Shown: one piece after another, positions 14,162 to 64,000 of the stretch | How the letters are laid out: every line of letters begins with the position of its first letter | Position numbering within the stretch: the stretch's first letter is position 1 | NCBI RefSeq assembly: GCF_016862915.1 | Contig: NZ_BONW01000051.1 | Span: 1-64,000 of the forward strand | Length of the DNA: 64,000 bases | Direction of reading: 5' to 3' | Source: Plantactinospora endophytica | GTDB lineage: Bacteria; Actinomycetota; Actinomycetes; Mycobacteriales; Micromonosporaceae | The notes under the pieces: generated by a model | Seen by the model: only the letters and a program-made list of their open reading frames with translations | Told to the model about the DNA's origin: nothing | The model's database searches: none | Program-made: the position numbers and the translations under genes

Positions 14162-14173
14162 ACGGATCAGTGG

Positions 14174-19013: not shown

Positions 19014-19025
19014 TCGACAACCATC

Positions 19026-19058: not shown

Positions 19059-19061
19059 ATG

Positions 19062-19279: not shown

Positions 19280-19960
19280 TTAGCGCTGTTCGCCTGGTAC
19301 TCCTGGCGTCCGCGTGTGAGTGCGTGTTTCCCATGCCCAGTGAGCGATACCGACACGATTTCGCACCTTCAGCTTGCGTTGGATGCTGGTGAGATGGGTC
19401 TTGACGGTGCCGGTGGTGATGTACAGCCTGTCGCCGATCTCGGGGTTGGTCAGGCCGTCAGCTACCAGCGAGACGATTTCCGTCTCGCGGTCGGACAGCG
19501 CAGGTTCCGGCTTGCGGGTGGGCTCGGTGGTGGTGCTGGCGAGCTTGCGCAGCAGCCGGACCGTCACGGTGGGGCTGATCAGCGCGTCGCCGGCTACTGC
19601 GGCACGGACTGCCTCGGTGAGCAGGGCGGGCCCGGAGTGTTTGACGAGGAATCCGCTGGCGCCGTGGCGGAGCGCGGTGTGCACGTAGGCGTCGAGGTCG
19701 TAGGCGGTCGCTACTACGACGCGAGCAGTAATGGGAGCGTCAGCTGCGCAAAGTCTCCGCGTTAGTTCGAGGCCGTCCATCCCGGGCATGCGGATGTCGG
19801 CGATGACGACGTCGGGCCGCAGCCGCTGAGTCAGGGCCAACGCCGTCTCACCGTCGGCGGCCTCGGCGACGACCTCGATGTCCTCGGCGGCGCGCAGGAT
19901 GGTGCGGAACCCGAAGCGGACGGAATCCTGATCATCGGCGATGAGCACGCGGATCGTCAT
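19280..19960 (-). CDS. NarL/LuxR-family response regulator
   Basis: 226 residues. The receiver domain (IRVLIADDQDSVRFGFRTIL, phospho-acceptor Asp in VVIADIRMPGMDG, then VVVATAYD and GFLVKHSGP with the conserved Lys) is joined to a LuxR-type helix-turn-helix (LSDRETEIVSLVADGLTNPE, IGDRLYITTGTVKTHLTSIQ). The open frame extends 16 residues upstream, but ATG 19960 overlaps the kinase stop as ATGA, so the two proteins are translationally coupled. Cognate partner of the kinase; the regulon is unknown. The membrane-protein gene, divergent from the kinase, may be a target. Confidence 0.93.
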   Translation of the reverse strand: MTIRVLIADDQDSVRFGFRTILRAAEDIEVVAEAADGETALALTQRLRPDVVIADIRMPGMDGLELTRRLCAADAPITARVVVATAYDLDAYVHTALRHGASGFLVKHSGPALLTEAVRAAVAGDALISPTVTVRLLRKLASTTTEPTRKPEPALSDRETEIVSLVADGLTNPEIGDRLYITTGTVKTHLTSIQRKLKVRNRVGIAHWAWETRTHTRTPGVPGEQR

Positions 19961-21213: not shown

Positions 21214-21349
21214 TGGTTCACCGTAGCCGCGCCGCGCCGACGGCCGGTATCTACCGATCGGCAGATGGTGACCGGTCCCTGTGCCTGGAGATCCTGGCGT
21301 CACGACGTCAGCCGCGAAGTGCGTGGCTGGCTCCCCAGGGAGGGCAATC

Positions 21350-22639: not shown

Positions 22640-22796
22640 GGAATGCCGACAACGTCTTCAGGCACGGGTATGCCGAACTATTCCGACCAGTTAGGGTCGG
22701 CGATGCCGGAGTGAGAGGCGCTGCGACGGACCAGGTCCGCCACGCTCACCCGGGTACCTCGGATCCAAGGGCGCTTTCCGCGATGAGGGAGGCGTG

Positions 22797-47490: not shown

Positions 47491-48477
47491 ATGGTGGACC
47501 AGACGTTCGGGCTCCAGCCTGCGGTCGACGCCCGGAGTCTCGGCCGGACTTACGTGCAGCGCCGGCGACTCTTGGGACCGCCGGTCGGTGAGGTCACCGC
47601 ACTGGGTGGAGTCGACCTACGCATCGGCGAGGGTGAGCTGCACGGGTTGCTCGGTCCGAACGGCGCGGGCAAGACCACGATGTGCAAGATCCTGTCCACG
47701 GTGCTGACGCCGTCCTCGGGTTCGATCAGGATCTTCGGGCTGGACGTGGTGCGTGACGCGAAGCAGCTGCGCCCGCTGATCGGCATCGTGATGGGCGGCG
47801 AGCGCGGCTTGTACTACAAGTTGACAGCACGCGAGTATCTGCGGTACTGGGCAGCGCTCTACGGCGTCGACACCCCTACTGCCGCCCGTCGCGCCGGCGA
47901 GTTGCTCGATCGGCTTGGGCTCGGCAAGCGTGCGGACCACCGGATCGAGACGTACTCGCGCGGCATGAAGCAGCGACTGCATTTGGCCAGGGGGCTCGTC
48001 ACCGATCCTCGGCTGCTCCTGCTCGACGAGCCGACCTCCGGTCTGGACCCGCTGGGGGCCAGGGCGTTCCGGGCGCTGATCGGCGAGTTGCGCCAGGACC
48101 GGACGATCCTGCTCACCACCCACGACATGGTGGAGGCCGAGCAGCTCTGCGACCGGGTCACGTTGATCGACAACGGCCGGGTCATCGCCACGGAAAGCCC
48201 GTCGACGCTCAGCACCCGGCTGACCCGGTTCGAGCGGGTCGACGCGCAGGGCGTCGACGACACGCTGCTGGCCAAACTTGCCGACGTGTCCGGGGTATCG
48301 GGCGCCGGGCGGCGCCCCGACGGCTCGGTCCGGGTGGAGACCGCGGCGAAGGACGCGTCCGGACAGGTCCTACGAATGCTGCTGGACGCCGGGGTGACCC
48401 GGGTACGCACGTCGCTGCCGGACCTCGAGGAGGTGTACGTGCACCTCGTCGACGGGCAGGGCGCGGCGCGGAGGTGA
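47491..48477 (+). CDS. ABC exporter ATPase (DrrA/Nod-type)
   Basis: 328 residues. Walker A LLGPNGAGKTTMCK (about 53-66), Q-loop region LIGIVMGGERGLYYKLTARE, signature YSRGMKQRLHLARG, Walker B RLLLLDEPTSGLDPLG, switch His in ILLTTHDMVEAEQLCDRVTL, and a C-terminal regulatory tail. The DrrA-like subgroup exports antibiotics with separate permeases. ATG 47491 is preceded by AGGAG. The stop overlaps the next gene (GTGA). It is the first gene of the seven-gene operon and very likely exports the operon's product. Confidence 0.93.
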   Translation: MVDQTFGLQPAVDARSLGRTYVQRRRLLGPPVGEVTALGGVDLRIGEGELHGLLGPNGAGKTTMCKILSTVLTPSSGSIRIFGLDVVRDAKQLRPLIGIVMGGERGLYYKLTAREYLRYWAALYGVDTPTAARRAGELLDRLGLGKRADHRIETYSRGMKQRLHLARGLVTDPRLLLLDEPTSGLDPLGARAFRALIGELRQDRTILLTTHDMVEAEQLCDRVTLIDNGRVIATESPSTLSTRLTRFERVDAQGVDDTLLAKLADVSGVSGAGRRPDGSVRVETAAKDASGQVLRMLLDAGVTRVRTSLPDLEEVYVHLVDGQGAARR

Positions 48478-49241
48478 CGGCAACGCTGGCGGCGGTGCGG
48501 CTGCAATGGTGGCTTATGCGGGGCAGCCTCGACGACCGTCAGTCCTTCATCCTCGCCCCGCTGTTCGTGCTGCTGCTGGTCGGCGCGGCGTACGCCCGTG
48601 GTCGTCAGGACCTGATTCCGCAGGCCGCCCTCGGCGCGGTGCTGATTTCCCTGTGGAACATCTGCGTGCAGGTCGGCGGGGGCATCGTCAGCAACGAGCG
48701 GCGGTTCGCCACCTTCGAGCTGGCTGCGGCCAGTCCTGCGGCCTTCCCACTCCTGGTGCTGGGCCGGGTGAGCACCGTCGTCGGGGTGGCCCTGCTGGTG
48801 ATACCCGAGGTGTGGCTGGCCACGCTGCTGTTCTTCGGCACGGCGGTCACCGTGGCACACCCAGGGCTGTTCGCGATCGCGCTGCTGCTCACAACCTTCG
48901 GCATGATCGCCGTGGCCGGGTTCGTCGCCGCGCTGTTCGTCCTGGCGCGCAACGCCTTGTACCTCCAGATCGCCTTCACGTATCCGTTCTTCATCCTCGG
49001 AGGGCTGGTCGTGCCGGTGTCGATGCTGCCGGAGTGGCTGGGGCCGGTGTCGCGGCTGGTGTTCTTGTCGTGGGGAGGCGATCTGCTGCGCGCGTCGCTC
49101 GACCCGCAGCCGCCGGCCGGGGTCGGGAAGCAGGTGACCGGACTGCTCGTCGCGTCGATCGTCACGTTCGCGCTGGGGCAGGTGCTGTTGGGCCGGCTCG
49201 TCGACCGGGCACGCCGGCACGGATCGCTGGGGCTGGCGTGA
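48474..49241 (+). CDS. ABC exporter permease 1 (ABC-2 type)
   Basis: 255 residues with six helices: QSFILAPLFVLLLVGAAYAR, LGAVLISLWNICVQVGGGIV, VSTVVGVALLVIPEVWLATL, FAIALLLTTFGMIAVAGFVA, LQIAFTYPFFILGGLVVPVS and VTGLLVASIVTFALGQVLLG. SNERRFATFELAAASP is the ABC-2 coupling-loop region after helix 2. GTG 48474 overlaps the ATPase stop, and its own stop overlaps the second permease (GTGA). It forms the membrane part of the exporter with that gene. Confidence 0.9.
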   Translation: MTATLAAVRLQWWLMRGSLDDRQSFILAPLFVLLLVGAAYARGRQDLIPQAALGAVLISLWNICVQVGGGIVSNERRFATFELAAASPAAFPLLVLGRVSTVVGVALLVIPEVWLATLLFFGTAVTVAHPGLFAIALLLTTFGMIAVAGFVAALFVLARNALYLQIAFTYPFFILGGLVVPVSMLPEWLGPVSRLVFLSWGGDLLRASLDPQPPAGVGKQVTGLLVASIVTFALGQVLLGRLVDRARRHGSLGLA

Positions 49242-50035
49242 GCCGGCTGTTGACGGTCGTCGGCTGGTCGTTGCGGCTGGGCCTGTCCGACCTCCGCACG
49301 GTGCACACCTGGCGGTCGTGGGTGTTCGGTTGGCTGTCCCGGGTCGTGTCGCAGGTGCTCTTCTTCAGCCTGGTCGGGCTGCTGTTCGGCGGCCGGGACC
49401 AGGTGCAGTTCCTGCTCGTCGGAAGTGCTGCGGTTATCGCCGTGCTGGAGTGCCTGTCGATCGTCATGTGGGCGGCGGCCGACCGGCACCTCGGCACGGC
49501 CGGCCTGGTCGTGGTGTCGCCCACCGACTACTTTCTGGCGTTCGCGGCGCGCGGGCTGCACACCGTGCTGACCGGTACGCTGTCGGCCCTCATCGCGCTC
49601 TATGCCGGCGCCGCGATCCTGCGGGTACCGCTGCATTGGCAGGGTGCGGTCGCCGCCGCGCCGGTCGTGCTGCTCGGCGCGTGCTCGGTCTACCTGCTGG
49701 CGGTGCTGGTCGCGGGTCTGGTCGCCACGGCGTCTGGTGCGCAGTGGCTGGCGCTGAACCTGACGTACATGCTCATCATGATTTTCGGCGGTTTCGTCAT
49801 TCCGCTCGACACCTGGCCGGCGGTGGTGCGGGCAATCGTCTCCGCAGTGCCGTACACCCACGCGTTGCAGGCGTTGCGCGAGGCGCTGGCGACCGGACCG
49901 GACTGGTCGTCCGTCCTGGCCCACTGTGGCTGGGAAGTCGTCGTCGCCGCAGCGTGGGCGGTGGCGGCGAAATCCGCGTTCGGCCTGGCGATCCGGCACG
50001 AGCGGCGCTCCGGTGGCGCGCTCCTGGCCGGCTGA
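49238..50035 (+). CDS. ABC exporter permease 2 (ABC-2 type)
   Basis: 265 residues from GTG 49238, overlapping the previous stop. Six hydrophobic segments, including WLSRVVSQVLFFSLVGLLFG, QFLLVGSAAVIAVLECLSIV, LTGTLSALIALYAGAAILRV, VVLLGACSVYLLAVLVAGLV and ALNLTYMLIMIFGGFVIPLD. ADRHLGTAGLVVVSPTD is the equivalent coupling loop. It pairs with the preceding permease as a heterodimer. Only 32 bp separate it from the PKS gene. Confidence 0.9.
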   Translation: MSRLLTVVGWSLRLGLSDLRTVHTWRSWVFGWLSRVVSQVLFFSLVGLLFGGRDQVQFLLVGSAAVIAVLECLSIVMWAAADRHLGTAGLVVVSPTDYFLAFAARGLHTVLTGTLSALIALYAGAAILRVPLHWQGAVAAAPVVLLGACSVYLLAVLVAGLVATASGAQWLALNLTYMLIMIFGGFVIPLDTWPAVVRAIVSAVPYTHALQALREALATGPDWSSVLAHCGWEVVVAAAWAVAAKSAFGLAIRHERRSGGALLAG

Positions 50036-50067: not shown

Positions 50068-53000
50068 ATGTCCAACGTAGACGGCAGGGTGGCGATCGTC
50101 GGGTACGCGGCGCGACTGCCGGGCGCCGACGACGCCGACACCTTCTGGCGGAACCTGTGCGCCGGCCGGGAGTCCGTCCAACAGCTCGACGCCGAAACGA
50201 TGGTGGAACGCGGCGTTCCGGAAAGCATGGCGCGACGCAAGGGTTTCCGGGCGGTCAGCGCCACCGCCGGAGACCTCGACCGGTTCGACGCCGAGTTCTT
50301 CGGCTTCACGCAGCGGGAGGCAGAAATCTGCGACCCGCAGTTCCGGCTGTTTCTGGAGCTGTCGTACACCGCGCTAGAGCACTCCGGGCACAACCCGTGG
50401 CAGTTGCCGGGCCGAGTCGCCGTGCTCGGCGGGGCAGCGTTGGGGACGTATCGCGAGGACCATCTGTTCCGCAACCGCTCGGTCCGCCAGGCGGTCGGTG
50501 ACGCGAGCATCCTGGTCGGCACCGGACCGGACTACATCGCGCCGCTGGTTTCGTACAAGCTCGGCTACGGCGGTCCGAGTGTCTCCCTCTACACGGCCTG
50601 CTCCACCTCGCTGGTCGCGGTTCATCTCGGCGTGCGGAGCCTGCGGGCCGGTGACTGCGACGTGGTGGTCGTCGGTGGTGTACAGGTGGACCTACCGATC
50701 GCCGGCGGCTACCTGTACCGGGAGGGCGGCATGTACTCGGCGGACGGTCACGTCCGGCCGTTCGCGGCCGACGCTTCCGGCACGATCTTTGGCAACGGCG
50801 GCGCGATCGTGGTGCTCAAGCGTTACGCCGACGCCGTTGCCGACGGTGACACCATCTACGCGATCGTGCTCGGCACCGCCGTCAACAACGATGGCAGCAG
50901 GCGGGCCGGATTCACGGCGCCCGGCGTCGCCGGCCAGGTTGACCTGGTCCGCTCGGCGTTGCGGGACGCCGCGGTGGACCCGCGCACGATCGGCATGATA
51001 GAGGCGCACGGCACCGGCACGGTTCTCGGCGACCCGATCGAGGTCTCGGCGTTGAGCGAGGTGTACCGGGAGCACACCGCCGATCGTGGGTTCTGCTGGC
51101 TCGGATCTGTCAAGGGCAACGTCGGGCACCTGGGTGCCGCAGCCGGCGCCGTGGCGCTGATCAAGAGCGTCTACGCCCTGCGGACCGGGACCATCCCACC
51201 CACCATCAACTGTGAAGTGCCGAACCCTGCGCTGCACCTGGACGAGGGTCCGTTCCGGCTCGCGACCAAGCTGACCGGCTGGGACCGCGAGCAGTCCGTA
51301 CGACGCGCGGCGGTGAGCTCGTTCGGGATCGGCGGTACCAACGCCCACGCCGTTCTCGAGCAGGCCCCCGCACTCCCCTGGCCCGAGGCCGAGCAGGACG
51401 CCTGGCGGGTCGTCGCGCTGTCTGCGCGGACCCCGGAGGCGCTGGACGAGGCCGGTTCGCGGCTCGGCCTCGCGCTCGCCGACGGCGCCGGGGACGGCGG
51501 GTTGGGCGCCGTGGCGTACACCCTGCAGGAGGGGCGACCCGGGTTCTCGCAGCGCCGGGCGGTCGTCGCCCGGAACGCGGCATCTGCGGCCGAGGCACTC
51601 CGGGCGCCGGTGGGCACCGGCGGTCTTCTGGTGAGCGGGCAGGCCACCACCCAGAACCCCCGGGTGGCGATGCTGTTTCCTGGCCAGGGCGCCCAGTCAC
51701 CCGGCATGGGCGCGGCGCTCTACCACGTATATCCACAATGGCGGGATGCGGTCGACGAGTGCGCCGTGATCCTCGAACCGCTACTCGGGTTCGACCTGCG
51801 GGAGCTGCTGCTGGCTCGGCCCCACGATGCGGACGCGGCGCTGCGGCTGCGGGAGACGGCAGTGGCGCAGCCGGCGCTCTTCGTGGTGCAGTGGGCCGCC
51901 ACGCGGCTCTGGGCGGACCTCGGTGTCCGGCCTGCCGCGATGCTCGGGCACAGCGTCGGCGAGCTCACCGCCGCCTGCGTCGCTGGTGTGTTCGACCTAC
52001 CGGACGCGCTGCGGCTCATCGCGCGGCGCGGAACGCTGATGCAGTCCACGCAGCGAGGCGCGATGCTGGCCCTGCTGCTGGACGCCGAAGCGGTACGCCC
52101 GATGCTGCCCGACGACCTGGACCTCGCGGCGGCGAACTCGCCGTCGGCCTGCGTGGTGTCCGGCCCGGCCGAGGCCGTGGCCGCGTTCGCAGCCGAGCTC
52201 GACGACCTCGGCATCGTCGCTACGCCGCTGCGCACCTCGCACGCCTTCCACTCCCGGCTGCTGGATCCGGTCCTGGACGCGTTCGTCGCTGCCTTCGACG
52301 GAGTGGAACTGCGACCGCCCGCCGTGCCGTTCGTGTCCGACGTGACCGGTGATTGGATCTCGGCCGGGCAGGCCACCGACCCCCGGTACTGGGCCGAGCA
52401 ACTGCGGCACGAGGTCCGGTTCGACGCGGGGTTGGCGACGCTGCGCCGGGCTGGGCATGACCTGCTACTCGAAGTGGGCCCCGGCAAGGCGTTGAGCGCC
52501 TTCGCGCGACAGCACATGATCAACGCCGGAGAACGGGCCGTGACGGTCGCCGCGATGTCCGGCAGGTACGACGACGTGGCCGACCTCTGCCTCGCCGCCG
52601 CACACCTGTGGACCAACGGTGTCGAGCCGGTGTGGGAGCGGTTGGAGCGTTCACGGGTGCGCCGCCGGGTGGCGCTGCCGGCGTACCCACTGCGGCGGGT
52701 GCGCTGCTGGGTGGAGCCGGACAAGGGTACCGACGACGAGCCGGACCAGGAGTTGCCCCGACTCAACCTGTACCTGCCGACGTGGCGCCAGGTCCCGCGC
52801 GTGACCGGGGCCCCGGATGCTGGGCAGCGGTGGCTGCTGGTCGGCGGCGGTGAGCTGGCCGGTGCCGTCGCCGGGTTCGCCACAGCCGCCGGCGTCGACG
52901 CGGTCGTCGCGACTGGGAACGAGTGGCAGGTGGCACCCGATTCGCCACCGGTGGACCGGGTCCTGGTCCTCGACGGCCTCGACCTGTCCACGTGGCGGCT

Positions 53001-55392
53001 CGGGATGCCCGCGGACGCGCGTCGGGCGTACGGGCGGATGGCCGAACTCGCCCAGGCGCTCATCCGGTACAGCCCGTCGCGGATCGAGGTCGTCGCGGTC
53101 ACCGACCGGACCTGGTCGGTGAACGGCGAACCGTCCCTGCCAGCGGGTGCGGCGGCGCTGGGCCCACTGTTGACACTGCCCCGCGAGCAGCCGGCTACGG
53201 CGGTCCGCCAGATCGACGCGGACGCCACCGTACCGGCGCACCGGCTCGCCACCTCGATCGTCGCGGAGGTGTTCGCCGGCAACCCTGCGGAGCGGGTGGC
53301 GCTGCGCGGGGAGCGCCGCTGGGTGCAGTCGTTCACAATTGCCCCGGACCTCACCGCGCAGCACGAGCCACCGCCGCTGCCGCCGCTGCGACCGGGTGGG
53401 CTCTACGTCCTCACCGGTGGGCTCGGTGGGCTCGGCCTCGCCGTCGCCGAGGAGTTCGGCCGGGCTGCGGGAGCCCATACCGTCCTCATCGGACGCTCGT
53501 CTGTCCCTGACCGGTCGCAGTGGGCCGGCTTGCTCGCCGAGGCCGGCACCGCCCGGGAAACCCGGCGGCGGATCGAGGGGATCCAGCGGGTCGAGGCGGC
53601 CGGCGGCACGGTGTCTACCCTCACGGCGGACGCCGCCGACCCCGAACAGATGGCAGCGGCGTTGCGGTTGGTCCGCGAGCGGTTCGGCGACGTACACGGT
53701 GTCGTACACGCCGCCGGGGTGCCCGGTGGTCAGCTCCTTGCCGTGCACGACATGGCTGCGGCCGACGCGGTGTTCAGGCCGAAACTCGACGGCGCGGCGG
53801 TGCTGGCCGGGCTCGCCGACGACGGGCAGTTCGCGGGCGCCGACTTCGTGCTGTTGTTCTCCTCGATCGTGTCGCTCAGCGCCGACTACGGCCACTGCGA
53901 CTACGCCGCCGCGAACCTGTTCCTCGACGCGCTCGCCACGGCCCGCGCCGACGGCGACCCACGGTTCATGGCAGTCAACTGGTGGGGCTGGCGCGACGTC
54001 GGGATGGTCTCCGACTCCGGTGGCACGGTGGCGTTCCAGCGCATGCAGCGGGTCCGTGGCGGCGTCGACCGGATCCCCGTCGAACATGTTCTGCTCGACG
54101 CGATGACGCGCGACGAGCCGGAGGTCAAGGAGTTCGATGTCCGGCTGCGCCCGGAGGCGCACTGGGTGTGGTCGGAGCACCGCATCGACGACGCTGGCGC
54201 GCTGCCCGGCACGAGCCTGCTGGAGATGGTCGCCGCGGCCGGGCGGCACGCCTGGGGTGTGGACACCCTGCAGGTCGCCGACGTGCTGTTCATCGACCCG
54301 GTCTTCGTCGCCACGGAGACCACCGCCCGGCTCACGTTCACCCCGGGCGCCGACGCCACCTGGTGGCAGTTCGCCATCGCGTTCGGCGACGGAAACGACG
54401 AACGCGTTCAGTGCCGGGGCGCGCTGCACCTCGGCACCACCGGCTCGCCGGACCGGGTCGACCTGAGCGCCTACCGGTCCGGGCTGACCGAGGTCGACCC
54501 GCACCTGCAGGATGGTGTCGTACAGTTCGGGCCGCACTACGGCGCCGTTGCCGGCTGTTGGTCCGACGGCGCGCGGGGCCTCGTGGAGCTACGTCTCGAC
54601 GAGGACCTGGCAGCGGACGTGGCCGACTTCGCGCTGCACCCGGCGCTGTTGGACCGGGCCTCGTACGGGGTACCCGCCCCGCAGGGCCACATCTACCTAC
54701 CGTTCTCCTACCGCCGAGTCGAGCTGCGTCGGCCGATACCCGCGCACTGCTGGGCCGTGCAGATCTACCGGTGCGACCCGGACCGGCCGGAGTTCATCGA
54801 GGCCGATATCACGATCGTCGACGGCACCGGGGCGGTCTGCGTGATCGTGGAGGGATACACCTGCCGCAGCGTCGGGGACGAGCAGGCAACCGCGCCGACG
54901 GTCGGCAGGCGGCAGGACCAGCCGTCGACGGCGGTGGGTGACGGGACCATGGTCGGCACCGCTGAGGGGCAACTGCTGCTGCGCCGCATCCTGGAGACCT
55001 GGCCCGGAGCGCAGGTCGTCACCACCGTGGGTCCGCTCTCTCGGCGGCTGGAGATCGCCCGCCGGTTCGACCAGGCCGCCATCGCCTCGGCCAACACCGC
55101 CGGGTCCGTCACCGGCGGCGGATCCCGGCCGGTTGGCGTGCCGTACGCGGCGCCGGGCACCGCCGCCGAGGTCGAGCTCACGAAGCTGTGGGCGGACACG
55201 CTTGGCGTGCCGGAGATCGGCATCGACGACGACTTCTTCGAGCTCGGTGGTTCGTCGCTCACCGTCGTGTACCTCGCCTCGCGGATCCGCGACCAACTCG
55301 GCGTCGAGCTCTCCGTCGCCGACTTGTTCGAACGATCGACGATCCGTGGGCTCGCAGGTGTCATCGACGGTGTGCGGGACGGGAGCCGATGA
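50068..55392 (+). CDS. One-module type I PKS, KS-AT-KR-DH-ACP
   Basis: 1774 residues. KS (about 5-430): active Cys178 in TACSTSLVAVH, His314 in EAHGTGTVLGDP, His354 in KGNVGHLGAAAG, so condensation-competent. AT (about 525-810): Ser629 in GHSVGELTA and the malonyl-type motif HAFH (His725). KR (about 900-1320): GGLGGLGLAVA (NADPH) and Tyr1279 in GHCDYAAANLF. DH-like double hotdog (about 1350-1620): His1371 in EHRIDDAGALPG and Asp1529 in HPALLDRAS. ACP with Ser1730 in LGGSSLTVV. DH lying after KR reverses the usual order. No TE; the chain passes to another protein. No N-terminal docking helix is obvious. It is coupled to the LanB-like gene by ATGA. Confidence 0.93.
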   Translation: MSNVDGRVAIVGYAARLPGADDADTFWRNLCAGRESVQQLDAETMVERGVPESMARRKGFRAVSATAGDLDRFDAEFFGFTQREAEICDPQFRLFLELSYTALEHSGHNPWQLPGRVAVLGGAALGTYREDHLFRNRSVRQAVGDASILVGTGPDYIAPLVSYKLGYGGPSVSLYTACSTSLVAVHLGVRSLRAGDCDVVVVGGVQVDLPIAGGYLYREGGMYSADGHVRPFAADASGTIFGNGGAIVVLKRYADAVADGDTIYAIVLGTAVNNDGSRRAGFTAPGVAGQVDLVRSALRDAAVDPRTIGMIEAHGTGTVLGDPIEVSALSEVYREHTADRGFCWLGSVKGNVGHLGAAAGAVALIKSVYALRTGTIPPTINCEVPNPALHLDEGPFRLATKLTGWDREQSVRRAAVSSFGIGGTNAHAVLEQAPALPWPEAEQDAWRVVALSARTPEALDEAGSRLGLALADGAGDGGLGAVAYTLQEGRPGFSQRRAVVARNAASAAEALRAPVGTGGLLVSGQATTQNPRVAMLFPGQGAQSPGMGAALYHVYPQWRDAVDECAVILEPLLGFDLRELLLARPHDADAALRLRETAVAQPALFVVQWAATRLWADLGVRPAAMLGHSVGELTAACVAGVFDLPDALRLIARRGTLMQSTQRGAMLALLLDAEAVRPMLPDDLDLAAANSPSACVVSGPAEAVAAFAAELDDLGIVATPLRTSHAFHSRLLDPVLDAFVAAFDGVELRPPAVPFVSDVTGDWISAGQATDPRYWAEQLRHEVRFDAGLATLRRAGHDLLLEVGPGKALSAFARQHMINAGERAVTVAAMSGRYDDVADLCLAAAHLWTNGVEPVWERLERSRVRRRVALPAYPLRRVRCWVEPDKGTDDEPDQELPRLNLYLPTWRQVPRVTGAPDAGQRWLLVGGGELAGAVAGFATAAGVDAVVATGNEWQVAPDSPPVDRVLVLDGLDLSTWRLGMPADARRAYGRMAELAQALIRYSPSRIEVVAVTDRTWSVNGEPSLPAGAAALGPLLTLPREQPATAVRQIDADATVPAHRLATSIVAEVFAGNPAERVALRGERRWVQSFTIAPDLTAQHEPPPLPPLRPGGLYVLTGGLGGLGLAVAEEFGRAAGAHTVLIGRSSVPDRSQWAGLLAEAGTARETRRRIEGIQRVEAAGGTVSTLTADAADPEQMAAALRLVRERFGDVHGVVHAAGVPGGQLLAVHDMAAADAVFRPKLDGAAVLAGLADDGQFAGADFVLLFSSIVSLSADYGHCDYAAANLFLDALATARADGDPRFMAVNWWGWRDVGMVSDSGGTVAFQRMQRVRGGVDRIPVEHVLLDAMTRDEPEVKEFDVRLRPEAHWVWSEHRIDDAGALPGTSLLEMVAAAGRHAWGVDTLQVADVLFIDPVFVATETTARLTFTPGADATWWQFAIAFGDGNDERVQCRGALHLGTTGSPDRVDLSAYRSGLTEVDPHLQDGVVQFGPHYGAVAGCWSDGARGLVELRLDEDLAADVADFALHPALLDRASYGVPAPQGHIYLPFSYRRVELRRPIPAHCWAVQIYRCDPDRPEFIEADITIVDGTGAVCVIVEGYTCRSVGDEQATAPTVGRRQDQPSTAVGDGTMVGTAEGQLLLRRILETWPGAQVVTTVGPLSRRLEIARRFDQAAIASANTAGSVTGGGSRPVGVPYAAPGTAAEVELTKLWADTLGVPEIGIDDDFFELGGSSLTVVYLASRIRDQLGVELSVADLFERSTIRGLAGVIDGVRDGSR

Positions 55393-57629
55393 ACACGGCC
55401 GAGCCGGTCGCGTTGCGGCCACTCGCGCCTGGTTGGGCGGTGTGGGACACCTTCGTGGTCCGGGCCGCCGGTCTGCCGTTCGAGTGGCTGGCCGGGCGGC
55501 GGCCTCCCGCCGACATCGCGGCCGAAATCGCGTTCCTCGAGGCCATCGGCTGGCAGAACCCTGGTCTCGCGGCGACGTTGCGCCGCGGCTACGCCCACAA
55601 GCGGCCAACCGACCGCCGGGCGGTGGACCGCACGGTCTGGGCGTACGCCCAGCGGTACTGCGCCAAAAACGACACCATCGGCCGCTTCGGCCCGGCGGCG
55701 TGGGGCACCTGGTCCGCGGACGGCACCTCGGTCGGGCCGGCCGGGCGTCAACCGCGCAGCCGGGACGTGTGCTTCGAGCTCTGGGCGGTGCAGGCGGTCG
55801 CGGAGGCGCTCGAGGAGCGGTACGGTCTGACGCCCTGGACCGTCGTGCACCTGGCGCCGTCGGTCGAGCGCACCACGGACGGAGTACGGCTCGCCGACGG
55901 GTCCGTCGTCCGCCTCGACCCTGCCGAGCTGCGAATACTGTCACTTGTGGACGGCCGCCGGACCGGCGCCGACCTCGCGTCCGAGGGCGGCGAGGACTCG
56001 CACCGCCGCCTCGCCCGACTGCGGGCGATGGGCATCGTCACCTCCGGCTTCGCGGTGCCGCGCGGTCTCGCCCCGGAGCGGACCCTGCGGGGTGGGCTGC
56101 TGCGGGTCCCCGCACCCGAGCGGCGCGGCGCCGCCGTGGCCGACCTCGATGCGCTCGTCGCCGCGCGGGACGCGATCGCTGCGGCCGGGGACCCGGACAT
56201 GTTCAGCGAAGCGATGGACAAGCTGGGTACCACCTTCGCGGAGCTGACCGGACGCGCGGCCGGGCAGCGGCCGGGCGAGTTCTACGCCGGCCGCACACTG
56301 GTTTTCGAGGACACTACGGCTGATTTCGACACGGTGCTCGGCACGGACGTGCTCGCCCGTCTCACGCCGCCGCTGACGCTGCTGCTGGACTCCGCGCTGT
56401 GGTTCTGCAATGCGGTCGCGCACGCGTACGAGCACTGGATCGTCGAGCGCTTCGGCGACCGTGCCCGTCAGCCCGGCGGAATACCGCTCGGTGCGGTGCT
56501 CGACGCGCTCACCCCGCTGGCCGAACTCGACGCGGTCGGCGCGGCGGTCCCTCCCGGCACCGCCAGCCCTGCCGAGCCTGCCGGCCCTACCGGAGCTTCC
56601 AGCACTGCCGGAGCTGGCGTTCCGCCGGCCGAGCCGGTCGCCGCAGAGTTGATCCGGCGCTGGGCTGCCCTTTTGGGCCTGACGCCGTCCGGCGGACCGA
56701 TCCACCGGACAAGTGCCGAGCTTCGGCCCCGGGCCGCCGAGCTGTTCGCCACCGGTGCGCCGCGGTGGGCGCGGGCTCGCTGGCAGTCTCCGGACGTCAT
56801 GTTCGCCGCCGCGTCGGCCGGTGACCTCGCCGCCGGCCGGTACGTGCCGGTCCTCGGCGAACTGCACGCCGGTCTGAACGCCACCGACCATATGCCGTTC
56901 GACCGCTCACATCCGGACCGGGTCGCGCTGCACGCGAGGATCCGCGCCGACAGCCGGGGCAAGTTCGTCCCCCTCTATCCGCTGAGGAACTCCCCGCTGA
57001 ACTCCCGCACCGTGCCGCCGGACTGGTTCCTGTCCGACGAGGACGTCTACCTCGGCACTGGTAGCGAGCCGCCGTACCAGCCGCGGACCGCCCGGACGCT
57101 GCCCGTGTCCACGCTGCGGCTGCACCTCGACGGCGACGTGGCCGTGGTCCGGACCGTCGACGGCCGGCCCGTGGCGCCGCTGGTGGAGGTGATCGGTGAC
57201 CACCTCAGTCACGCGGGCGCGCAGCGGTTCCGGGTCGCCGCGCCGGCACGGCACCAGCCCCGGATCACCATCGACGACCTCGTGGTCAGCCGGGAGTGCT
57301 GGAGTGCGCCGCTGGCCGAGATTCCCGCCGGCGCGGCGTTCCCGGCCGGGCTACGGGCCGCCTTCCCTGCCATGGCCACCGACCGGTTCCTGTTCGCGAC
57401 CGTCACCGGCGAACGCAAGCCGTTCTTCGTCGACGTCGACAACAGCCAGTCCCTGGCCGTGCTCGCACACCGGGTGCGCCGCCGGCAGGCGACGCACCCG
57501 GGCGGGCGGCTCGTGCTGACCGAGATGCTGCCCGGACCTGACGACCTCTGGCTGCGCGACGACCGCAACCAGCGGTACACGGTCGAGTTCCGCCTTGTCT
57601 GTGTGCGGGCCGACGCGGAGACCCGATGA
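55389..57629 (+). CDS. LanB-like dehydratase, glutamylation (Lant_dehydr_N) domain only
   Basis: 746 residues. It resembles the N-terminal domain of LanB lantibiotic dehydratases, which use glutamyl-tRNA to glutamylate Ser/Thr: WAVWDTFVVRAAGLPFEWLA, RYCAKNDTIGRFGPAAWG (89-106, the conserved RxxxxxxxFGxFa block), DVCFELWAVQAVAEALEERY, WFCNAVAHAYEHWIVERFG, an Ala/Pro linker at about 390-417, then FVPLYPLRNSPLNSRTVPPD and RITIDDLVVSRECWSAPLAE and the closing WLRDDRNQRYTVEFRLV. The SpaB_C elimination domain of full-length LanB (about 1000 residues) is absent, and no precursor peptide lies nearby. ATGA overlaps couple it to the PKS and to the thioesterase. Confidence 0.8.
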   Translation: MNTAEPVALRPLAPGWAVWDTFVVRAAGLPFEWLAGRRPPADIAAEIAFLEAIGWQNPGLAATLRRGYAHKRPTDRRAVDRTVWAYAQRYCAKNDTIGRFGPAAWGTWSADGTSVGPAGRQPRSRDVCFELWAVQAVAEALEERYGLTPWTVVHLAPSVERTTDGVRLADGSVVRLDPAELRILSLVDGRRTGADLASEGGEDSHRRLARLRAMGIVTSGFAVPRGLAPERTLRGGLLRVPAPERRGAAVADLDALVAARDAIAAAGDPDMFSEAMDKLGTTFAELTGRAAGQRPGEFYAGRTLVFEDTTADFDTVLGTDVLARLTPPLTLLLDSALWFCNAVAHAYEHWIVERFGDRARQPGGIPLGAVLDALTPLAELDAVGAAVPPGTASPAEPAGPTGASSTAGAGVPPAEPVAAELIRRWAALLGLTPSGGPIHRTSAELRPRAAELFATGAPRWARARWQSPDVMFAAASAGDLAAGRYVPVLGELHAGLNATDHMPFDRSHPDRVALHARIRADSRGKFVPLYPLRNSPLNSRTVPPDWFLSDEDVYLGTGSEPPYQPRTARTLPVSTLRLHLDGDVAVVRTVDGRPVAPLVEVIGDHLSHAGAQRFRVAAPARHQPRITIDDLVVSRECWSAPLAEIPAGAAFPAGLRAAFPAMATDRFLFATVTGERKPFFVDVDNSQSLAVLAHRVRRRQATHPGGRLVLTEMLPGPDDLWLRDDRNQRYTVEFRLVCVRADAETR

Positions 57630-58351
57630 GTGCCGCACGGTTCCGCCTTGTGCCGCCGGACGGTGTCGGGCCGACCGTCCTCGCGTTCCCGCACGCGGGT
57701 GGTGGGGGCGACGCGTTCCGGCCGGTCGCCGAGCGGCTCGGGCCCGGACTGCGGCTGCGCACGACGCAGCTGCCGGGCCGGGAGCACCTCACCGGGCGCA
57801 GGCCGTACCTCGCGATGGACGACCTGGTCAACGACCTCGTCCCGGCCGCCTCCGGCGCTGTGGCATTCTTCGGCCACAGCATGGGCGCATTCGTGGCGGT
57901 GGCGCTGGCGATCGGGCTCGCCGACCGGGGCCTGCCTGTCCCGAGCGCTCTCGTCCTGGCCGGAGCCGGCGCCCCGGATCGACGCGACCCAGCCGACGAC
58001 GTACACCGGCTTGGCGACGAGCAACTGTTGGCCCGCGTCCACGACTACGGCGGTACTGCCCCGGAGTTGCTGACCGCGCCGGCCATGATCCGGTCACTCC
58101 TGCCGGCGTTGCGGTCTGACTTCACCCTGTTCGAGACGTGGCGACCCGATCGACCGAAGCCGCTGGAGACGACGCTGACGGTGCTGGCGGGTGCCGACGA
58201 CGCGTTCGTGTCGCCGTTCCAGCTGGAGGGCTGGTCCGCGCACAGCAGCCGGCCTGTGTCGTACCACCGGCTGCCGGGTGGGCACTTCTTCTTCCGCGAC
58301 GAGGCGGACGCCACCGCCCGGATCCTGCGTACCGCCGTGGTGCGTGGATGA
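57626..58351 (+). CDS. Type II thioesterase
   Basis: 241 residues. FPHAGGGGDAFRPVAERL and LRTTQLPGREHLTGRRPYLA are the type II TE signatures; Ser85 in FFGHSMGAFVAVALA, an Asp in VLAGADDAFVSPFQLEGWSA, and His in RLPGGHFFFRDEA complete the triad. It edits stalled carrier proteins of the PKS/NRPS line or offloads product. ATGA overlaps on both sides (57626-57629 and 58348-58351) put it in the same transcript and coupled to the NRPS gene. Confidence 0.93.
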   Translation: MSAARFRLVPPDGVGPTVLAFPHAGGGGDAFRPVAERLGPGLRLRTTQLPGREHLTGRRPYLAMDDLVNDLVPAASGAVAFFGHSMGAFVAVALAIGLADRGLPVPSALVLAGAGAPDRRDPADDVHRLGDEQLLARVHDYGGTAPELLTAPAMIRSLLPALRSDFTLFETWRPDRPKPLETTLTVLAGADDAFVSPFQLEGWSAHSSRPVSYHRLPGGHFFFRDEADATARILRTAVVRG

Positions 58352-61300
58352 TGACCCCCGCCGTACCGCCCGGTGGGCTCTTCGCGCTGTTCGCCGCGCA
58401 GATGCGGTCCACACCGGACCAGCCGGCGGTGCGGTGCGGTGCTGACCGGCTGACCTACCGGCAGTTGTACGGGATCGCGCTCGGCGTGGCCGAGGACCTG
58501 TGCGCCGCCGGGGTGACGCCGGGCGACGTCGTCGGGCTGCACGCCGAACCGTCAGTGCCGTATGTGGCCGGGGTGCTCGGTGTCCTCGCCGCCGGAGCCG
58601 CGTTCCTGCCCCTGGATCCGGCACAGCCGGTTGCCCGGGTACGCCAGCTCGTCGACGAGGCGCGGCCCGCCGCCTGCCTCGCGACGGCCGGTGGTGCCCT
58701 GCCCGACCTGCCGGTGAAGCTACTCCGGATTCCGGCGTCGCCGCCTGCGGTGGCACCGGTGTCCGCGCCGCTCGGCGTCGCCCCGGACGACCTCGCCTAC
58801 GTTATCTACACCTCCGGTTCGACCGGCCGACCCAAGGGCGTGCGCTGCCATCACCGCGGCATCGTGGCGTTGCTCGCCGACGTCGGGACGCGGGCGCCGC
58901 TGCCGCCCGGCGGGGTCTGCACGTGGTGGACCGCGACCGGTTTCGACGTGTCGGTGTACGAGATCTTCTCGGCGCTGCTCGGCGGTGAGCTGCTCGTCGT
59001 CCCGGCCGCCGCGCGAACCGACCCGGCCGCGCTGCTGGAGTTGTTCGCCACCGAACGGGTGGCGAGCGCGTACGTGCCGCCGTTCGCCGTGGCAGACCTC
59101 GCCGACTGGGCCGAGGCGAATCCCGGCCGGCTGGTGCTGCGCCGACTTCTCGTGGGCGTCGAACCGATCGAGGAGCGGCTGCTGCGCCGGATCGCCGCCG
59201 CCGTCGACGGGCTACGGGTCCTCAACGGCTACGGCCCGACCGAAACCCACGTCTGCGCGACGCTCTACGAGGTGCCCGTCGGGCAGGGTGATTCCGCGAC
59301 CGGTCGGACCCCGATCGGCCGGCCCGTCATCGGATCCCGGACGTACGTCCTCGACGACGCCCAGCGAACGGTGGCGCCGGGCACGACCGGTGAGCTGTAC
59401 GTCGGCGGTGCGGGGATCGCGCACGGCTACCATCGCGCGGCCGAGCTGACGGCGGTGGCCTTCCCGACCGTCGACCTCGGCGCCGGTCCGCAGCGGCTGT
59501 ACCGCACCGGGGATCTCGTGCGGCAGCGCGCCGACGGTGAGCTGATGTTCGTGGGACGCGCCGATCACCAGCTCAAGGTGCGTGGTCACCGCGTCGAGCC
59601 GGGCGAGGTCGAGGCGGCGTTGCTGGCCGACGAGACCGTCCGGTCGGCTGCCGTGACGAGCCCCGCCGGTAGCGACGTCCTGCGCGCGTACGTCGTTCCA
59701 CAGGCTCCGGACGGGTTCGACCCGGCCGGTCTCCGGTCCCGTCTCGCCAGCCGGTTGCCGTCGCACCTGGTGCCCGACGTGCTGACGGTGCTGCACCGGC
59801 TGCCGCAGACCCGCCACGGCAAGCTCGACCGGGCCGCCCTGGCCGATCTGGCCGTGCCGGCCGCCCCCGCGCCGCCGCCCGCACCGTACGTAACGGCGAC
59901 GGAGCGGTACGTCGGCGGCGTCTGGGCCGACATTCTCGGTGGCGGTGGGTACGGCCCTCGGAGCCGTTTCCTCGACGCGGGCGGGCACTCGCTCGCCGCG
60001 ATCCGCATCGCCGGGCAGATCCGCCGCGACACCGGGGTCGACGTCACCATCGGCGACGTGTACGCCCACCCGACGGTTGCCGGGCTCGCCGCACTCGTGG
60101 AGCGGCACGGCACGACCCGGCGGCCGGCGAACACACCGGTCACGACCGCGCCGCGACTCGCACCACTGTCCGCAGCCCAGGACGCGCTCCTGCTGCTGCA
60201 CCGGATGTACCCCGACTGCCGGGCCTACCACGTCGCGGTGCTGCACGAGGTCACCGGAGCGCTGGACGTCACGGTGCTGCGAGACGCGGTCATCGCGGTG
60301 TGCGACCGGCACACGGCACTGGGCAGCACACTCGTCGAGGCGGCCGGAACGGTCCTCCAGAAAGCCGGCCGGGCCGACGCCGTACCGTTCGACGTCGTCG
60401 ACGCGCAGGGTGGGCCGACGGCGCTCGCGCGCCAGGTCGCCGGGATCGTCCAGGAACCCTGGAACCTGCGGGCCACGCCCGCGCTGCGGGTCACTCTGCT
60501 GCGGACCGCGCTCGACCGGCACCTGCTGCTCCTGCTGGCGCACCACCTGTTCACCGACGGCTGGTCCATGGAGCTCGTGCAGCGGGACCTGTCTGCGGCC
60601 TACCGGTCTCTGCGTGCCGGACGGACGCCGGACCTGCCGCCGGTGCGTCAGGCAGCCGAACTCGCCAAGGCGGGCCGTCACCCCGACGAGGAAACACACG
60701 TGGCGTACTGGCGGCAGCGGCTCGCCCGGGTGCCACCTCCGCAGCCGTTGCCGATCCAGCGGGCCCGCGGAAATCCCCGGTTCCGGGGCGACCGGGTCGG
60801 GTTCACCCTGGACGGCGATGCGACCACCGCCCTGCGCACGCTGGCCCGGGACCGGGGAGTCGGACTGTTCAGCGTGCTGGCCACGGGGTTCGCAACCGTG
60901 CTCACTACGTATCTCGGCCGGCCCGACGTGCTGCTCGGCGTTCCGGTCGCCGGCCGCGACGAGCCGGACTGGGACGACAGCGTCGGCTTCTTCAACAACT
61001 CGCTCGCCGTCCCCTGCACGATCCCCGCCGCCGGCACGTTCGCCGCCAACGCGACCGCGTTCCAGACCGAACTGCTCGCCGCGCTGTCGCACCGCCAGGC
61101 ACCGTTCGCCGCAGTGGTCAACGCCGTGGCGCCACCCCGGGAGGCGGGCGCGAACCCGCTGTTCCGGTTCTGGTGCAACATGCTGTCGTACCCCAAGTAC
61201 CCCCTCGAACTCGACGGTTGCGCCGTGCGGCCCGTACCGGCGCCGGTGCCGGGAGCGCTGTTCGACCTCTCCTGCTACCTGGTCGAACACCCCGACCGGA

Positions 61301-63108
61301 TCGACGTCGAGCTGGTCTTCGACACCGACCTGTTCGACCGGGACCGGATCGAGGTCCTAGCCGCGCACTGCCGGCAGGTGTATAAGGCCGCTGCCGAAGC
61401 TCCGGACGAACCGGTCGGGTTGGCCGCTCACCCGCCGAGACCGCCGCTTCCGGCAGTGGGACGGCCGGCGGTCCCGACCGTCGCCGAGCAGTTGACCAGG
61501 GCGACGCGGGCCTGTCCGGACCTGCCGGCGCTGGTGTACGGCGACCGCGTCTGGACCTACCGGGAACTGCACGACGAGGTAGCGGCACGACCGCCGCACG
61601 GGTTCGGCTATCCGGCAGACCGGGACCCGGCCCTGGTACTCACCGTCCTGGCGGCGTTGACCGCGGGTGTCCCGTTCGCCCTCCTGGACCGCGCCCAGCC
61701 GGCGGACCGGCTGCGGCGGATGCGGCGACGGCTTGAGATCGACGCCGCCACCCTTCCGAACACGACCGCGTACGTCGCCTTCACATCCGGCACGTCCGGC
61801 GAGCCCCAGGGCGTGATCGCCGGCCAGGCACCGCTCGCCGCGTTCGTCGCCCGGCACCGCGCCGAACACGGCATCGGCCCCGGGGACCGGTTCGCACTGC
61901 TGGCCGGCATCGGGCACGACCCACTGCTCCGGGAGATCCTCGTCGCCCTGACCAGCGGCGCCACCCTGTACGTCCCCGAGCCCGGCACGACCGTCGACCC
62001 TGGCCGACTGGTCCGCTGGCTGGCCGCGCGGCGCATCACCGTGCTGTACCCGACCCCGGCCACCGGCCGGTTGTACGCGGGCGCGGCGCAGACGGCGCGG
62101 CTGTCGCTGCCGGACGTCCGCCTGGTCGGGTTCGGCGGCGCCCCGTCGACAGCGGCGGACGTACCCGTCGTCCGGCGGCTGTTTCCCCGTGCCCGGCTAC
62201 AGTCCTACTACGGTGCGACGGAGACCCCTCAGGTCGTCAGCGTCGTCGAGCTGGTGCCGGCGGACCCGGCCGACCTGGGAGGGCACGGCCCCGCCGACGG
62301 CCGAGACGAGCGCGGACCGCTCGGCACGCTGCTCGGCACCGGCCACGGCGACGCGGACCTGCTCGTCGTGGACCGTGACGGCCGTCCGGCTCCGGTCAAC
62401 GCGCTCGGTGAGGTGGTGGTCCGCAGCCCACACCTCGCGCTGGGCTACCTCGGCGCCGGACCCGCCACACAGCGGTTCCGTCGCGACCCGGGCGACGACC
62501 CGGCGGTGCGCCGGTACCACACCGGCGACCTCGGCTGCCGCCGTCCGGACGGCCGGATCGAGTTCCGTGGCCGGACCGACCGACAACTCAACCTCGCCGG
62601 TCTGCGCGCCGAGCCCGGCGAGATCGAGCACCTGGCACGAACACATCCGGAAGTACGGGAGTGTCTGGTCATCGGCCCCGGAGAACACTCGGCGGAGGCA
62701 CTCACCGCCTACATCCAGCCGGCCACGCCGACGCTGACCGAGGCGGCCGTACGCGCGCACCTCGCCGCCGTACTGCCACCGCTGCTGGTTCCGGCCGACG
62801 TGATCCTCGTGGACGCGATCCCGCTGACGGCGAACGGCAAACTCGACCCGCGACGGCTCCCGCCGCGCCGCCGCACCCGCACGGTGCACACGGACCTCGC
62901 CGGGCCGGTGGCGGCGATCTGGGCCGCTGCCCTCGGCGAGCAACCGGCGCCGGACGTCAACTTCTTCGACGCCGGCGGCACGTCGGTCACCCTGCTGCTG
63001 GTGCAGGATCACCTGAAACGGCTGCTCGGACGCACGGTGCCGCTCGCCCTGCTCTTCGCCCACCCGACCGTGCGAAGCATGGCCGCCGCCCTCACCGCCG
63101 ACCCCTAG
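58348..63108 (+). CDS. NRPS, A-T-C-A-T
   Basis: 1586 residues. A1 (about 10-500): [14 protein letters not shown] (A3), [15 protein letters not shown] (A4), [12 protein letters not shown] (A5), [20 protein letters not shown] (A7-A8), [10 protein letters not shown] (A10 Lys). T1: [13 protein letters not shown], Ser548. C (about 590-1035): HHLFTDGWS (His732-His733-Asp737, HHxxxDG intact) and [9 protein letters not shown]. A2 (about 1045-1490): [13 protein letters not shown], the odd A4 [44 protein letters not shown] and [10 protein letters not shown]. T2: [12 protein letters not shown], Ser1546. A1 lacks a leading C domain, so it may load the starter or accept from the PKS. The extracted A1 pocket residues (D-V-Y-Y-L-G-G-V-C) match no code I can assign. 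There is no TE or reductase. Confidence 0.93.
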   Translation: [1586 protein letters not shown]

Positions 63109-63213: not shown

Positions 63214-64000
63214 TCACCGCTGATCCTTCGTTGGGCCCCGACCCCGGCCCGCGCCCTCGCCTGCGGCGAGCCGGCGCAGGGCGTCGCGGCAGCCGGCAGC
63301 GAGTGCCTCGATCGTGACGCCACGGTGCAGATTGCGGCTGTACCCGAACTGCAGCGTCAGCGCACCATCCACGAGCGACGCGAAGACGGAGACGGGCCAC
63401 GACCGCAGTGCGCGAGGGCTACGGACCCGCAGCGGCCGACCGGCGGGCGTCCCGCTCGCCACGGGAGCCCGGTCCACCACGCCGACGTAGTTGAAGGACA
63501 GCCCGGCCGGGGAGGCCGGCACCGACGGGGCACCGGCCGGCGGGTAGCGCAGCAGCCCGTACGACAGGCCGTGGTGTGGCACGTCGCGCCACCGCTCGCC
63601 GGTCTCCGCGACCGTGTCGGCGACGTCCGCTCCCGGCGGCACCGGCACCCGCAACGGGAAGATGGCGGTGAACCAGCCGAGCGTCCGGCTGACGTCGAGC
63701 GACGGGTCCGCCGGCCGGCGCCCGTGGTCGAGCACGTCAACGACGACGTCACCACGGCCGGCTCGGTCACCGACGGTCCAGAGCAACGCGCCGAGCGCCA
63801 CCTCGGCGAGCCGACCGGAGAACCGGGTGCCGAGCGTCGTGGTGCTGGCCGCGTCGAGGTGTGCGAACGCAAACGCCACCGAGCCCTCCTCGGCCGGCCC
63901 GGTCGAGTGGTCGACATCGACGGTGACCGCACCGGGGGCGGTCGCCGCCATCCAGTACGGCACGGCGGCGCGCACGGCGGGACTCGTCGCGTACCGGGCC
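63214..64000 (-). CDS. NRPS condensation/epimerisation-type domain protein, 3' part (runs off the window)
   Basis: About 262 residues to the window edge, with no start inside. It resembles the second half of a condensation-superfamily domain: ATSPAVRAAVPYW, VVVDVLDHGRRPADPSLDVS, RTLGWFTAIFPLRVPV (the SRTVGWFT-type motif of epimerisation and related C domains), GLSYGLLRYPPAG, LSFNYVGVVD (family FNYLG) and LQFGYSRNLHRGVTIEALAA. The catalytic HHxxxDG would be further upstream, outside the window. Strand is opposite to the main operon, so it belongs to another transcript of the same cluster, probably a longer NRPS or a stand-alone domain. Confidence 0.8.
   Translation of the reverse strand, partial: ARYATSPAVRAAVPYWMAATAPGAVTVDVDHSTGPAEEGSVAFAFAHLDAASTTTLGTRFSGRLAEVALGALLWTVGDRAGRGDVVVDVLDHGRRPADPSLDVSRTLGWFTAIFPLRVPVPPGADVADTVAETGERWRDVPHHGLSYGLLRYPPAGAPSVPASPAGLSFNYVGVVDRAPVASGTPAGRPLRVRSPRALRSWPVSVFASLVDGALTLQFGYSRNLHRGVTIEALAAGCRDALRRLAAGEGAGRGRGPTKDQR

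What the first reader, a model, noticed from the sequence alone, without database searches (positions are those of the whole stretch)
50068..63108. PKS - LanB-like - thioesterase - NRPS assembly line on one coupled transcript
Seen: four genes joined by ATGA overlaps, with a LanB glutamylation-domain protein lying exactly between a one-module PKS and an A-T-C-A-T NRPS, and an exporter in front. Known: LanB N-domains transfer glutamate from glutamyl-tRNA to Ser/Thr of ribosomal peptides, or act in peptide-extending PEARL systems. Inference: here the LanB-like enzyme may act on a carrier-bound or free Ser/Thr-containing intermediate, giving a dehydroamino acid or a tRNA-derived amide in a hybrid polyketide-peptide. 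I know of no described system with this exact gene set.
Basis: partly seen in the sequence, partly recalled or inferred. Interest (0 to 1): 0.87.

Follow-up and report, generated by a model that had tools for sequence, protein, structure and literature searches.

The report
tRNA-dependent ligase in hybrid assembly line
A bacterial factory for a mixed peptide-polyketide molecule carries an enzyme that probably glues on one extra amino acid, taken from a transfer RNA, at an acid group the factory itself cannot reach; one such factory has been described before, but this one seems to expose that acid group in a different way.

Summary
Window 50068-63108 holds four genes joined by three ATGA overlaps: PKS (KS-AT-KR-DH-ACP), LanB-like protein, type II thioesterase and NRPS (A-T-C-A-T), behind a three-gene ABC exporter. 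A second NRPS (C-A-T-E-like) follows on the other strand, mostly outside the window. Exporter, PKS, LanB-like gene and first NRPS recur in order in two Spongiactinospora genomes at 59-75% identity, without the thioesterase.

The LanB-like protein is probably not a dehydratase: it has no elimination domain and keeps the ATP-site residues of peptide aminoacyl-tRNA ligases (PEARLs). A close described system is threopeptin (PMC11212132), where a PEARL-like enzyme adds Thr to a carboxylate freed by a ureido-forming C domain. The window lacks that C-domain signature. Its second A domain instead has Arg at position 239, as in 6 of 19 LanB cluster types against 0 of 88 background A domains; but four of the six suggested the idea, and the other two alone are not significant. 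I propose that this module loads an amino-dicarboxylic acid whose free carboxylate the PEARL amidates. PEARL assignment about 0.8; substrate idea about 0.35, untested.

The parts
47491..48477 (+). ABC exporter ATPase (DrrA-like)
   Evidence: PF00005; TIGR01188 drrA 258 bits, below its cut-off of 312; 74-75% identical in Spongiactinospora; 52% to the ATPase of the Streptomyces sp. NBC_01216 LanB cluster L019
48474..49241 (+). ABC exporter permease 1
   Evidence: PF01061; 68-70% in Spongiactinospora
49238..50035 (+). ABC exporter permease 2
   Evidence: TIGR00025/TIGR01247 weak, below cut-off; 65-66% in Spongiactinospora
50068..55392 (+). One-module type I PKS, KS-AT-KR-DH-ACP (KR before DH), AT motifs GHSVGE and HAFH
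   Evidence: Pfam; KS, AT, KR and ACP motifs present, DH His and Asp present; 64% in both Spongiactinospora
55389..57629 (+). LanB-like protein, 746 aa, PEARL-type amide ligase (proposed)
   Evidence: PF04738 only; residues placed on the PEARL ATP site conserved among relatives; 61-63% in Spongiactinospora
57626..58351 (+). Type II thioesterase; absent at this place in both Spongiactinospora clusters
   Evidence: PF00975; in L021 and L022 the LanB-like gene overlaps the NRPS gene directly
58348..63108 (+). NRPS 1, A-T-C-A-T; C motif AHHLFTDG; A1 code DVYYLGGVC
   Evidence: Pfam; motifs; codes; 59-60% in Spongiactinospora
61342..62901 (+). Second A domain of NRPS 1 (segment used for searches), GHDPLLRE motif, code DPRYGGYQV: Arg at position 239
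   Evidence: code identical in both Spongiactinospora
63214..64000 (-). 3' part of NRPS 2 (C-A-T-E-like); the gene runs to contig position 67698, outside the window; A code DVENVGGIT
   Evidence: Pfam; 51% over its length to the last gene of the S. rosea cluster

Best explanation
The genes form one small biosynthetic cluster for an exported hybrid peptide-polyketide. From the domains: NRPS 1 can start the chain (it begins with A-T, so it needs no upstream partner) and the PKS can add one unit, reduce it and probably dehydrate it. Inferred: the LanB-like protein is not a dehydratase but a PEARL-type ligase; with ATP it phosphorylates a free carboxylate on the chain, couples it to the amino group of an aminoacyl-tRNA, and the tRNA is then hydrolysed off, so that one more residue is added where the thioester line cannot act. 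Inferred, weaker: that carboxylate belongs to an amino-dicarboxylic acid (Asp, methyl-Asp, Glu or aminoadipate type) loaded by the second A domain of NRPS 1, whose Arg239 would hold the second carboxyl. In the threopeptin system the free carboxylate comes instead from ureido formation. Not known: which amino acid is added, which of the two carboxyls is on the thioester, and the order in which NRPS 2 and the PKS act.
For: (1) In an alignment of 40 LanB-like proteins (near-identical ones included; pieces from L061, L062 and L072 left out as short or broken), residues placed by order and spacing on the published BhaB7 ATP site are conserved: Asp469, Glu491, His493, Arg635, Glu733, Arg735 in 40 of 40; Arg25 in 39 (1 gap); Phe669 in 35 (5 Tyr); Lys677 in 32 (8 Arg) (residues from PMC11962472 and PMC12945691). 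The profile match to TbtB (6ec7) stops before the Glu-x-Arg region. (2) No PF14028 in the protein. (3) In the sna cluster a PEARL-like enzyme adds Thr at a free carboxylate (PMC11212132). (4) Arg239 A domains: 6 of 19 LanB cluster types, 6 of 38 A domains, against 0 of 88 in 20 NRPS regions without LanB. (5) Searched from the A domain, the 8 best plasmid records are the 8 that hold the best LanB hits, about 7 kb away; the one examined (NBC_01369) has an A-T-C-A-T NRPS with this A domain second. (6) L019 (NBC_01216) has LanB, an Arg239 A domain, methylaspartate mutase PF06368 and an exporter related to the window's (52/37/33%).
Against: The Arg239 pattern was first noticed in the window, L053, L017-type and L019; without these four, 2 of 15 types remain and the excess is not significant (P 0.18 by type, 0.07 by A domain). 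13 of 19 LanB cluster types have no Arg239 A domain; L085 has the ureido signature instead. L151 has two Arg239 A domains and no LanB. In L018 the Arg239 A domain is about 13 kb from the LanB and may be unrelated. The background was not random. The meaning of Arg239 rests on recalled codes that two literature searches did not find. By my placement the CCA-binding Arg208 of BhaB7 is Lys in 39 of 40, and Tyr205 is Phe in 10 of 40. No known PEARL sequence was aligned, and the AlphaFold model failed (pLDDT 36).
Confidence: 0.47

Rival explanations
1. The protein is a PEARL-type ligase, but its substrate is the terminal carboxylate left when the thioesterase hydrolyses the finished chain from the PKS carrier protein; it simply caps the end with one amino acid.
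For: A thioesterase gene lies next to it in the window; PEARLs act on C-terminal carboxylates (PMC11962472).
Against: The thioesterase is missing beside the ligase in both Spongiactinospora clusters, though one could be supplied from elsewhere. It does not explain the Arg239 A domains in several LanB clusters.
Confidence: 0.26
2. The protein releases the chain itself: aminoacyl-tRNA attacks the carrier-bound thioester, giving an amide and freeing the carrier, without ATP.
For: No thioesterase recognised in the S. rosea cluster or, by eye, in its flanks; NRPS 2 ends in a condensation-type domain that I read as E-like, not a TE.
Against: The residues placed on the ATP site are conserved, which this route would not need. 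A thioesterase could be supplied from elsewhere.
Confidence: 0.12
3. The protein glutamylates a Ser or Thr on a carrier-bound intermediate, giving a dehydroamino acid.
For: It matches the LanB N-terminal family.
Against: No elimination domain in the protein or found in the genome (controls silent); PEARL-type residues present.
Confidence: 0.06
4. The cluster is decaying and makes nothing: NRPS 2 is inverted next to an insertion-sequence-like transposase.
For: NRPS 2 is on the opposite strand from its arrangement in S. rosea, with an ORF that I read by eye as a transposase about 35 bases from its start.
Against: The open frames are full length against the relatives and the motifs looked at are intact.
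Confidence: 0.1

Closest known systems
sna (threopeptin) cluster of Stackebrandtia nassauensis, PMC11212132 (main text read)
   Same: A-T-C-A-T NRPS, one-module PKS, stand-alone thioesterase, LanB-annotated stand-alone ligase, transporters; no precursor peptide
PEARLs of RiPP-scaffold pathways (BhaB, TglB, AmmB; PMC11962472 sections 9-11 and PMC12945691 section 9 read)
   Same: Related to the LanB N-domain, no elimination domain, same ATP-site residues by my placement
   Different: No scaffold peptide gene recognised; Lys where BhaB7 has the CCA-binding Arg208 (my placement)
Class I lantibiotic dehydratases (NisB, MibB, TbtB)
   Same: PF04738; weak profile match to TbtB, 38 bits
   Different: No PF14028, no lanthipeptide precursor recognised, Glu-x-Arg near the C-terminus not covered by the TbtB match

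Membership tests
PEARL / PEARL-like ligase | PF04738-type protein without PF14028 elimination domain | tested here: met
   genome search found none, but its controls were silent
PEARL / PEARL-like ligase | ATP-site residues corresponding to BhaB7 Asp558, Glu575, His577, Arg715, Glu813, Arg815 | tested here: met
   each identical in 40 of 40 LanB-like proteins; placed by order and spacing, not by alignment to a PEARL sequence
PEARL / PEARL-like ligase | CCA-binding Tyr205 and Arg208 of BhaB7 | tested here: inconclusive
   Lys in 39 of 40 and Arg in 1 at the Arg208 place; Tyr in 30 and Phe in 10 at the Tyr205 place; placed by the YxxR spacing
PEARL / PEARL-like ligase | ATP- and aminoacyl-tRNA-dependent amide bond formation | not testable with these tools
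   needs enzymology
Class I lantibiotic dehydratase | elimination domain PF14028 in the protein or in trans | tested here: not met
   not in the protein; not found in the genome, with the caveat that nothing rang in the controls
Class I lantibiotic dehydratase | lanthipeptide precursor gene nearby | tested here: inconclusive
   none recognised by eye among called genes of the contig or of the S. rosea region; ORFs under 40 codons not called, no dedicated search
Threopeptin-type (chain-reversal) cluster | A-T-C-A-T NRPS, one-module PKS, LanB-like ligase, thioesterase | tested here: met
   thioesterase absent in both Spongiactinospora clusters
Threopeptin-type (chain-reversal) cluster | ureido-forming C domain EHHxxHDG | tested here: not met
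   AHHLFTDG in the window, AHHLFSDG and THHLFSDG in the relatives; QHHLICDE in NRPS 2

The most novel reading that the evidence does not exclude
There is a second general way, beside ureido chain reversal, by which assembly lines hand a carboxylate to a PEARL-like ligase: an A domain with Arg239 loads an amino-dicarboxylic acid through one carboxyl and leaves the other free, and the ligase extends the chain sideways or backwards from it with an amino acid taken from tRNA. The window's NRPS 1 and its LanB-like neighbour would be one instance, together with the NBC_01369-type, G014 (L053), NBC_01216 and LanB-A-PLP-carrier-LanB clusters.
Probability: 0.3. Interest if true: 0.75.

Novelty: new variant of a known kind. 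Interest (0 to 1): 0.56.

Why it matters
About two thousand NRPS/PKS clusters carry genes annotated as lantibiotic dehydratases, by the count in PMC11212132, which solves one of them. If the Arg239 pairing holds, the branch point and substrate class in a share of the rest could be read from sequence, and branched peptides that link aminoacyl-tRNA to thiotemplated lines could be predicted. That is directly testable with one A domain and one ligase.

Tried and rejected
Dehydratase reading: set aside on the missing elimination domain and the PEARL-type residues. Ureido chain reversal: rejected for the window on the C-domain motif. Structure prediction from three sequences failed (mean pLDDT 36) and was not used; no fold search was run. 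A single-sequence search of solved structures found no LanB; the profile found TbtB and two chance-level matches. Literature searches for recalled specificity codes found 0 papers, as did one on microcystin glutamate activation; the passages seen in PMC6562525 and PMC11355689 do not settle the meaning of Arg239. Two structure-database searches with other Arg239 A domains listed the methylaspartate enzyme SlgN1 (4gr5; that this entry is SlgN1 is recalled) but did not print its alignment. A first LanB tree read several rows in a wrong frame; it was redone and only that is used; its deep nodes have low support (0.39, 0.40). Genome searches scored at most 10, 5 and 4 candidates per genome and so may undercount. 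Of the LanB hits, I fetched surroundings for 5 of 15 plasmid records and, of the 15 genomes with a match (own included), for 14 (not G098, and only one of two places in G099).

Full report
What is there. The window is the first 64,000 bases of a 75,300-base contig of an unnamed 9.68-Mb genome. Pfam finds KS, AT, KR, DH and ACP in the PKS in that order, so KR precedes DH; the LanB-like protein matches only PF04738, mainly its first part; the thioesterase is PF00975; the NRPS is A-T-C-A-T. Motifs of KS, AT, KR and ACP are present, and the DH has its His and Asp but not the usual Gly between His and Pro (motif meaning recalled). The AT motifs GHSVGE and HAFH suggest malonyl-CoA (recalled). Three exporter genes lead in.

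Beyond the window's end the contig carries a second NRPS on the minus strand, 63214-67698, with C, A, T and a second condensation-type domain that I read as E-like from its motifs (motifs recalled). An ORF that I read by eye as a transposase lies about 35 bases upstream of its start.

Is the set conserved? A pattern scan of the genome collection (one genome for each of 84,980 species) with the LanB-like protein, which reaches close relatives only, gave 12 candidate stretches and two relatives: Spongiactinospora rosea and S. gelatinilytica. In both, ATPase, permease, permease, PKS, LanB-like and A-T-C-A-T NRPS stand in the same order at 59-75% identity. In S. rosea the C-A-T-E-like NRPS (51%) follows directly on the same strand; the S. 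gelatinilytica contig ends inside the first NRPS. In both, the LanB-like gene overlaps the NRPS gene, so no thioesterase lies between them; in S. rosea the flanks look, by eye, like unrelated genes. So the LanB-like gene is core and the thioesterase is not, and NRPS 2 has probably been inverted in the window's genome. Among the six other genomes of the window's genus, one has a 36% relative of the protein.

What the LanB-like protein is. Published work on PEARLs names the residues that bind ATP and tRNA in BhaB7 and TglB (PMC11962472, outline and sections 9-11; PMC12945691, passages and section 9). I had no PEARL sequence to align, so I placed these residues by order and spacing on an alignment of relatives. 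Asp558, Glu575, His577, Arg715, Glu813 and Arg815 fall on Asp469, Glu491, His493, Arg635, Glu733 and Arg735, each identical in 40 of 40 LanB-like proteins, near-identical ones included. The profile match to the glutamyl-tRNA enzyme TbtB in the PDB ends before the Glu-x-Arg pair. The CCA-binding Arg208 appears as Lys in 39 of 40 and Tyr205 as Phe in 10 of 40. A search for the elimination domain PF14028 in the genome found nothing, but neither did its controls.

The closest described system. Yu and van der Donk (PMC11212132; outline and parts 1-3 of 6 read, which cover the main text; passages of the preprint PMC10769383) studied a cluster with an A-T-C-A-T NRPS, a one-module PKS, a thioesterase and a LanB-annotated enzyme, SnaE. 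SnaE adds Thr, by their proposal from Thr-tRNA, to a carboxylate that is exposed because the C domain joins two Arg residues by a urea. They report about two thousand NRPS/PKS clusters with such genes. The window's C domain has AHHLFTDG, not EHHxxHDG; the two relatives agree. So some other carboxylate must be offered here.

A possible source of that carboxylate. The second A domain of NRPS 1 has the motif GHDPLLRE and the nine-residue code DPRYGGYQV, the same in both Spongiactinospora. From memory, adenylation domains with Arg239 include those for side-chain-linked Glu and methyl-Asp and for aminoadipate; two literature searches did not confirm this. I looked at other LanB-like genes with their surroundings and computed A-domain codes. 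After merging near-duplicates by hand (L021 and L022 with the window; L020, L061, L064 with L017; L057, L065, L066, L068 with L056; L071 with L070), leaving out loci with LanB but no A domain (L008, L010, L054, L055, L086) and the two extensions L087 and L088, 6 of 19 cluster types have an Arg239 A domain: the window, L016, L017, L018, L019 and L053. That is 6 of 38 A domains. In 20 NRPS regions without LanB, from the window's genome and relatives, it is 0 of 88 A domains with a residue there (89 found), and 0 of 33 segments from 30 further A-domain loci, three of them gapped. Fisher's test gives 0.0006 by A domain, 0.008 by region and 0.0015 against distinct background codes. These values flatter the idea: I noticed the pattern in the window, L053, L017 and L019 before counting. 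Without the window alone it is 5 of 18 types (0.017) and 5 of 35 A domains (0.0015); without all four it is 2 of 15 types (0.18) and 2 of 31 A domains (0.07). The background regions were not random and hold some near relatives of each other.

Further support and limits. Starting from the A domain instead, the eight best of 31 plasmid records are the eight that hold the best LanB hits, about 7 kb away, with near-identical match figures, so probably one cluster seen eight times. In the one examined, the NRPS is again A-T-C-A-T with the Arg239 domain second, 34% identical to NRPS 1 over 1,671 aligned positions. Of ten regions fetched because they resembled these A domains, nine have no Arg239 and one (L151) has two, without LanB but beside an ATP-grasp gene. 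L053 and L019 have ATP-grasp genes as well as LanB. L019 also encodes methylaspartate mutase (PF06368) and an exporter 52%, 37% and 33% identical to the window's three genes, which fits an acidic amino acid as substrate. Against this, 13 of 19 LanB cluster types show no Arg239 domain, among them one with the ureido signature, EHHMIHDG in L085.

Verdict. The finding is real and its gene set is conserved. The enzyme is most likely a PEARL-type ligase, which places the cluster beside threopeptin as a variant with a different, still hypothetical, way of exposing a carboxylate. The Arg239 pairing is a lead, not a demonstration. I saw no mention of it in the listings or in the parts of papers named above; most of the listed papers were not opened.

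Noticed in passing
L009 10438-16242 (own genome contig C4, about 60-66 kb): A second PEARL-like cluster in the same genome: carrier protein, C domain, LanB-like protein and an A domain with code DPFYLAVVT (no Arg239).
   Followed up: partly
L008 7031-9460 and L010 7858-10281 (own genome, contigs C4 and C28): Two gene sets that look alike by eye, each with a more distant LanB-like protein (149 and 133 bits) and, by eye, aminotransferase-like, methyltransferase-like and cysteine-synthase-like genes; no A domain found in either region.
   Followed up: no
   Followed up: no
L019 (Streptomyces sp. NBC_01216 plasmid), 10397-22689: Exporter, methylaspartate mutase, LanB-like, carrier protein, Arg239 A domain, ATP-grasp ligase and C domain in one run.
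   Followed up: partly
L070 5736-11399 and L071 9291-15095: LanB-like domain in one reading frame with the end of an NRPS (C, A and T before it) in two genomes.
   Followed up: no
L151 11491-17295 (Streptomyces sp. NBC_01431 plasmid): Two Arg239 A domains without LanB in the region, near genes annotated as ATP-grasp, asparagine synthase and lysine 2,3-aminomutase.
   Followed up: no
window 50068-55392: PKS module with KR before DH, the reverse of the usual order.
   Followed up: no
contig C51 67733-68074 (L007 about 7734-8075), outside the window: Transposase-like ORF (by eye) next to the start of NRPS 2, whose orientation is inverted relative to S. rosea.
   Followed up: partly
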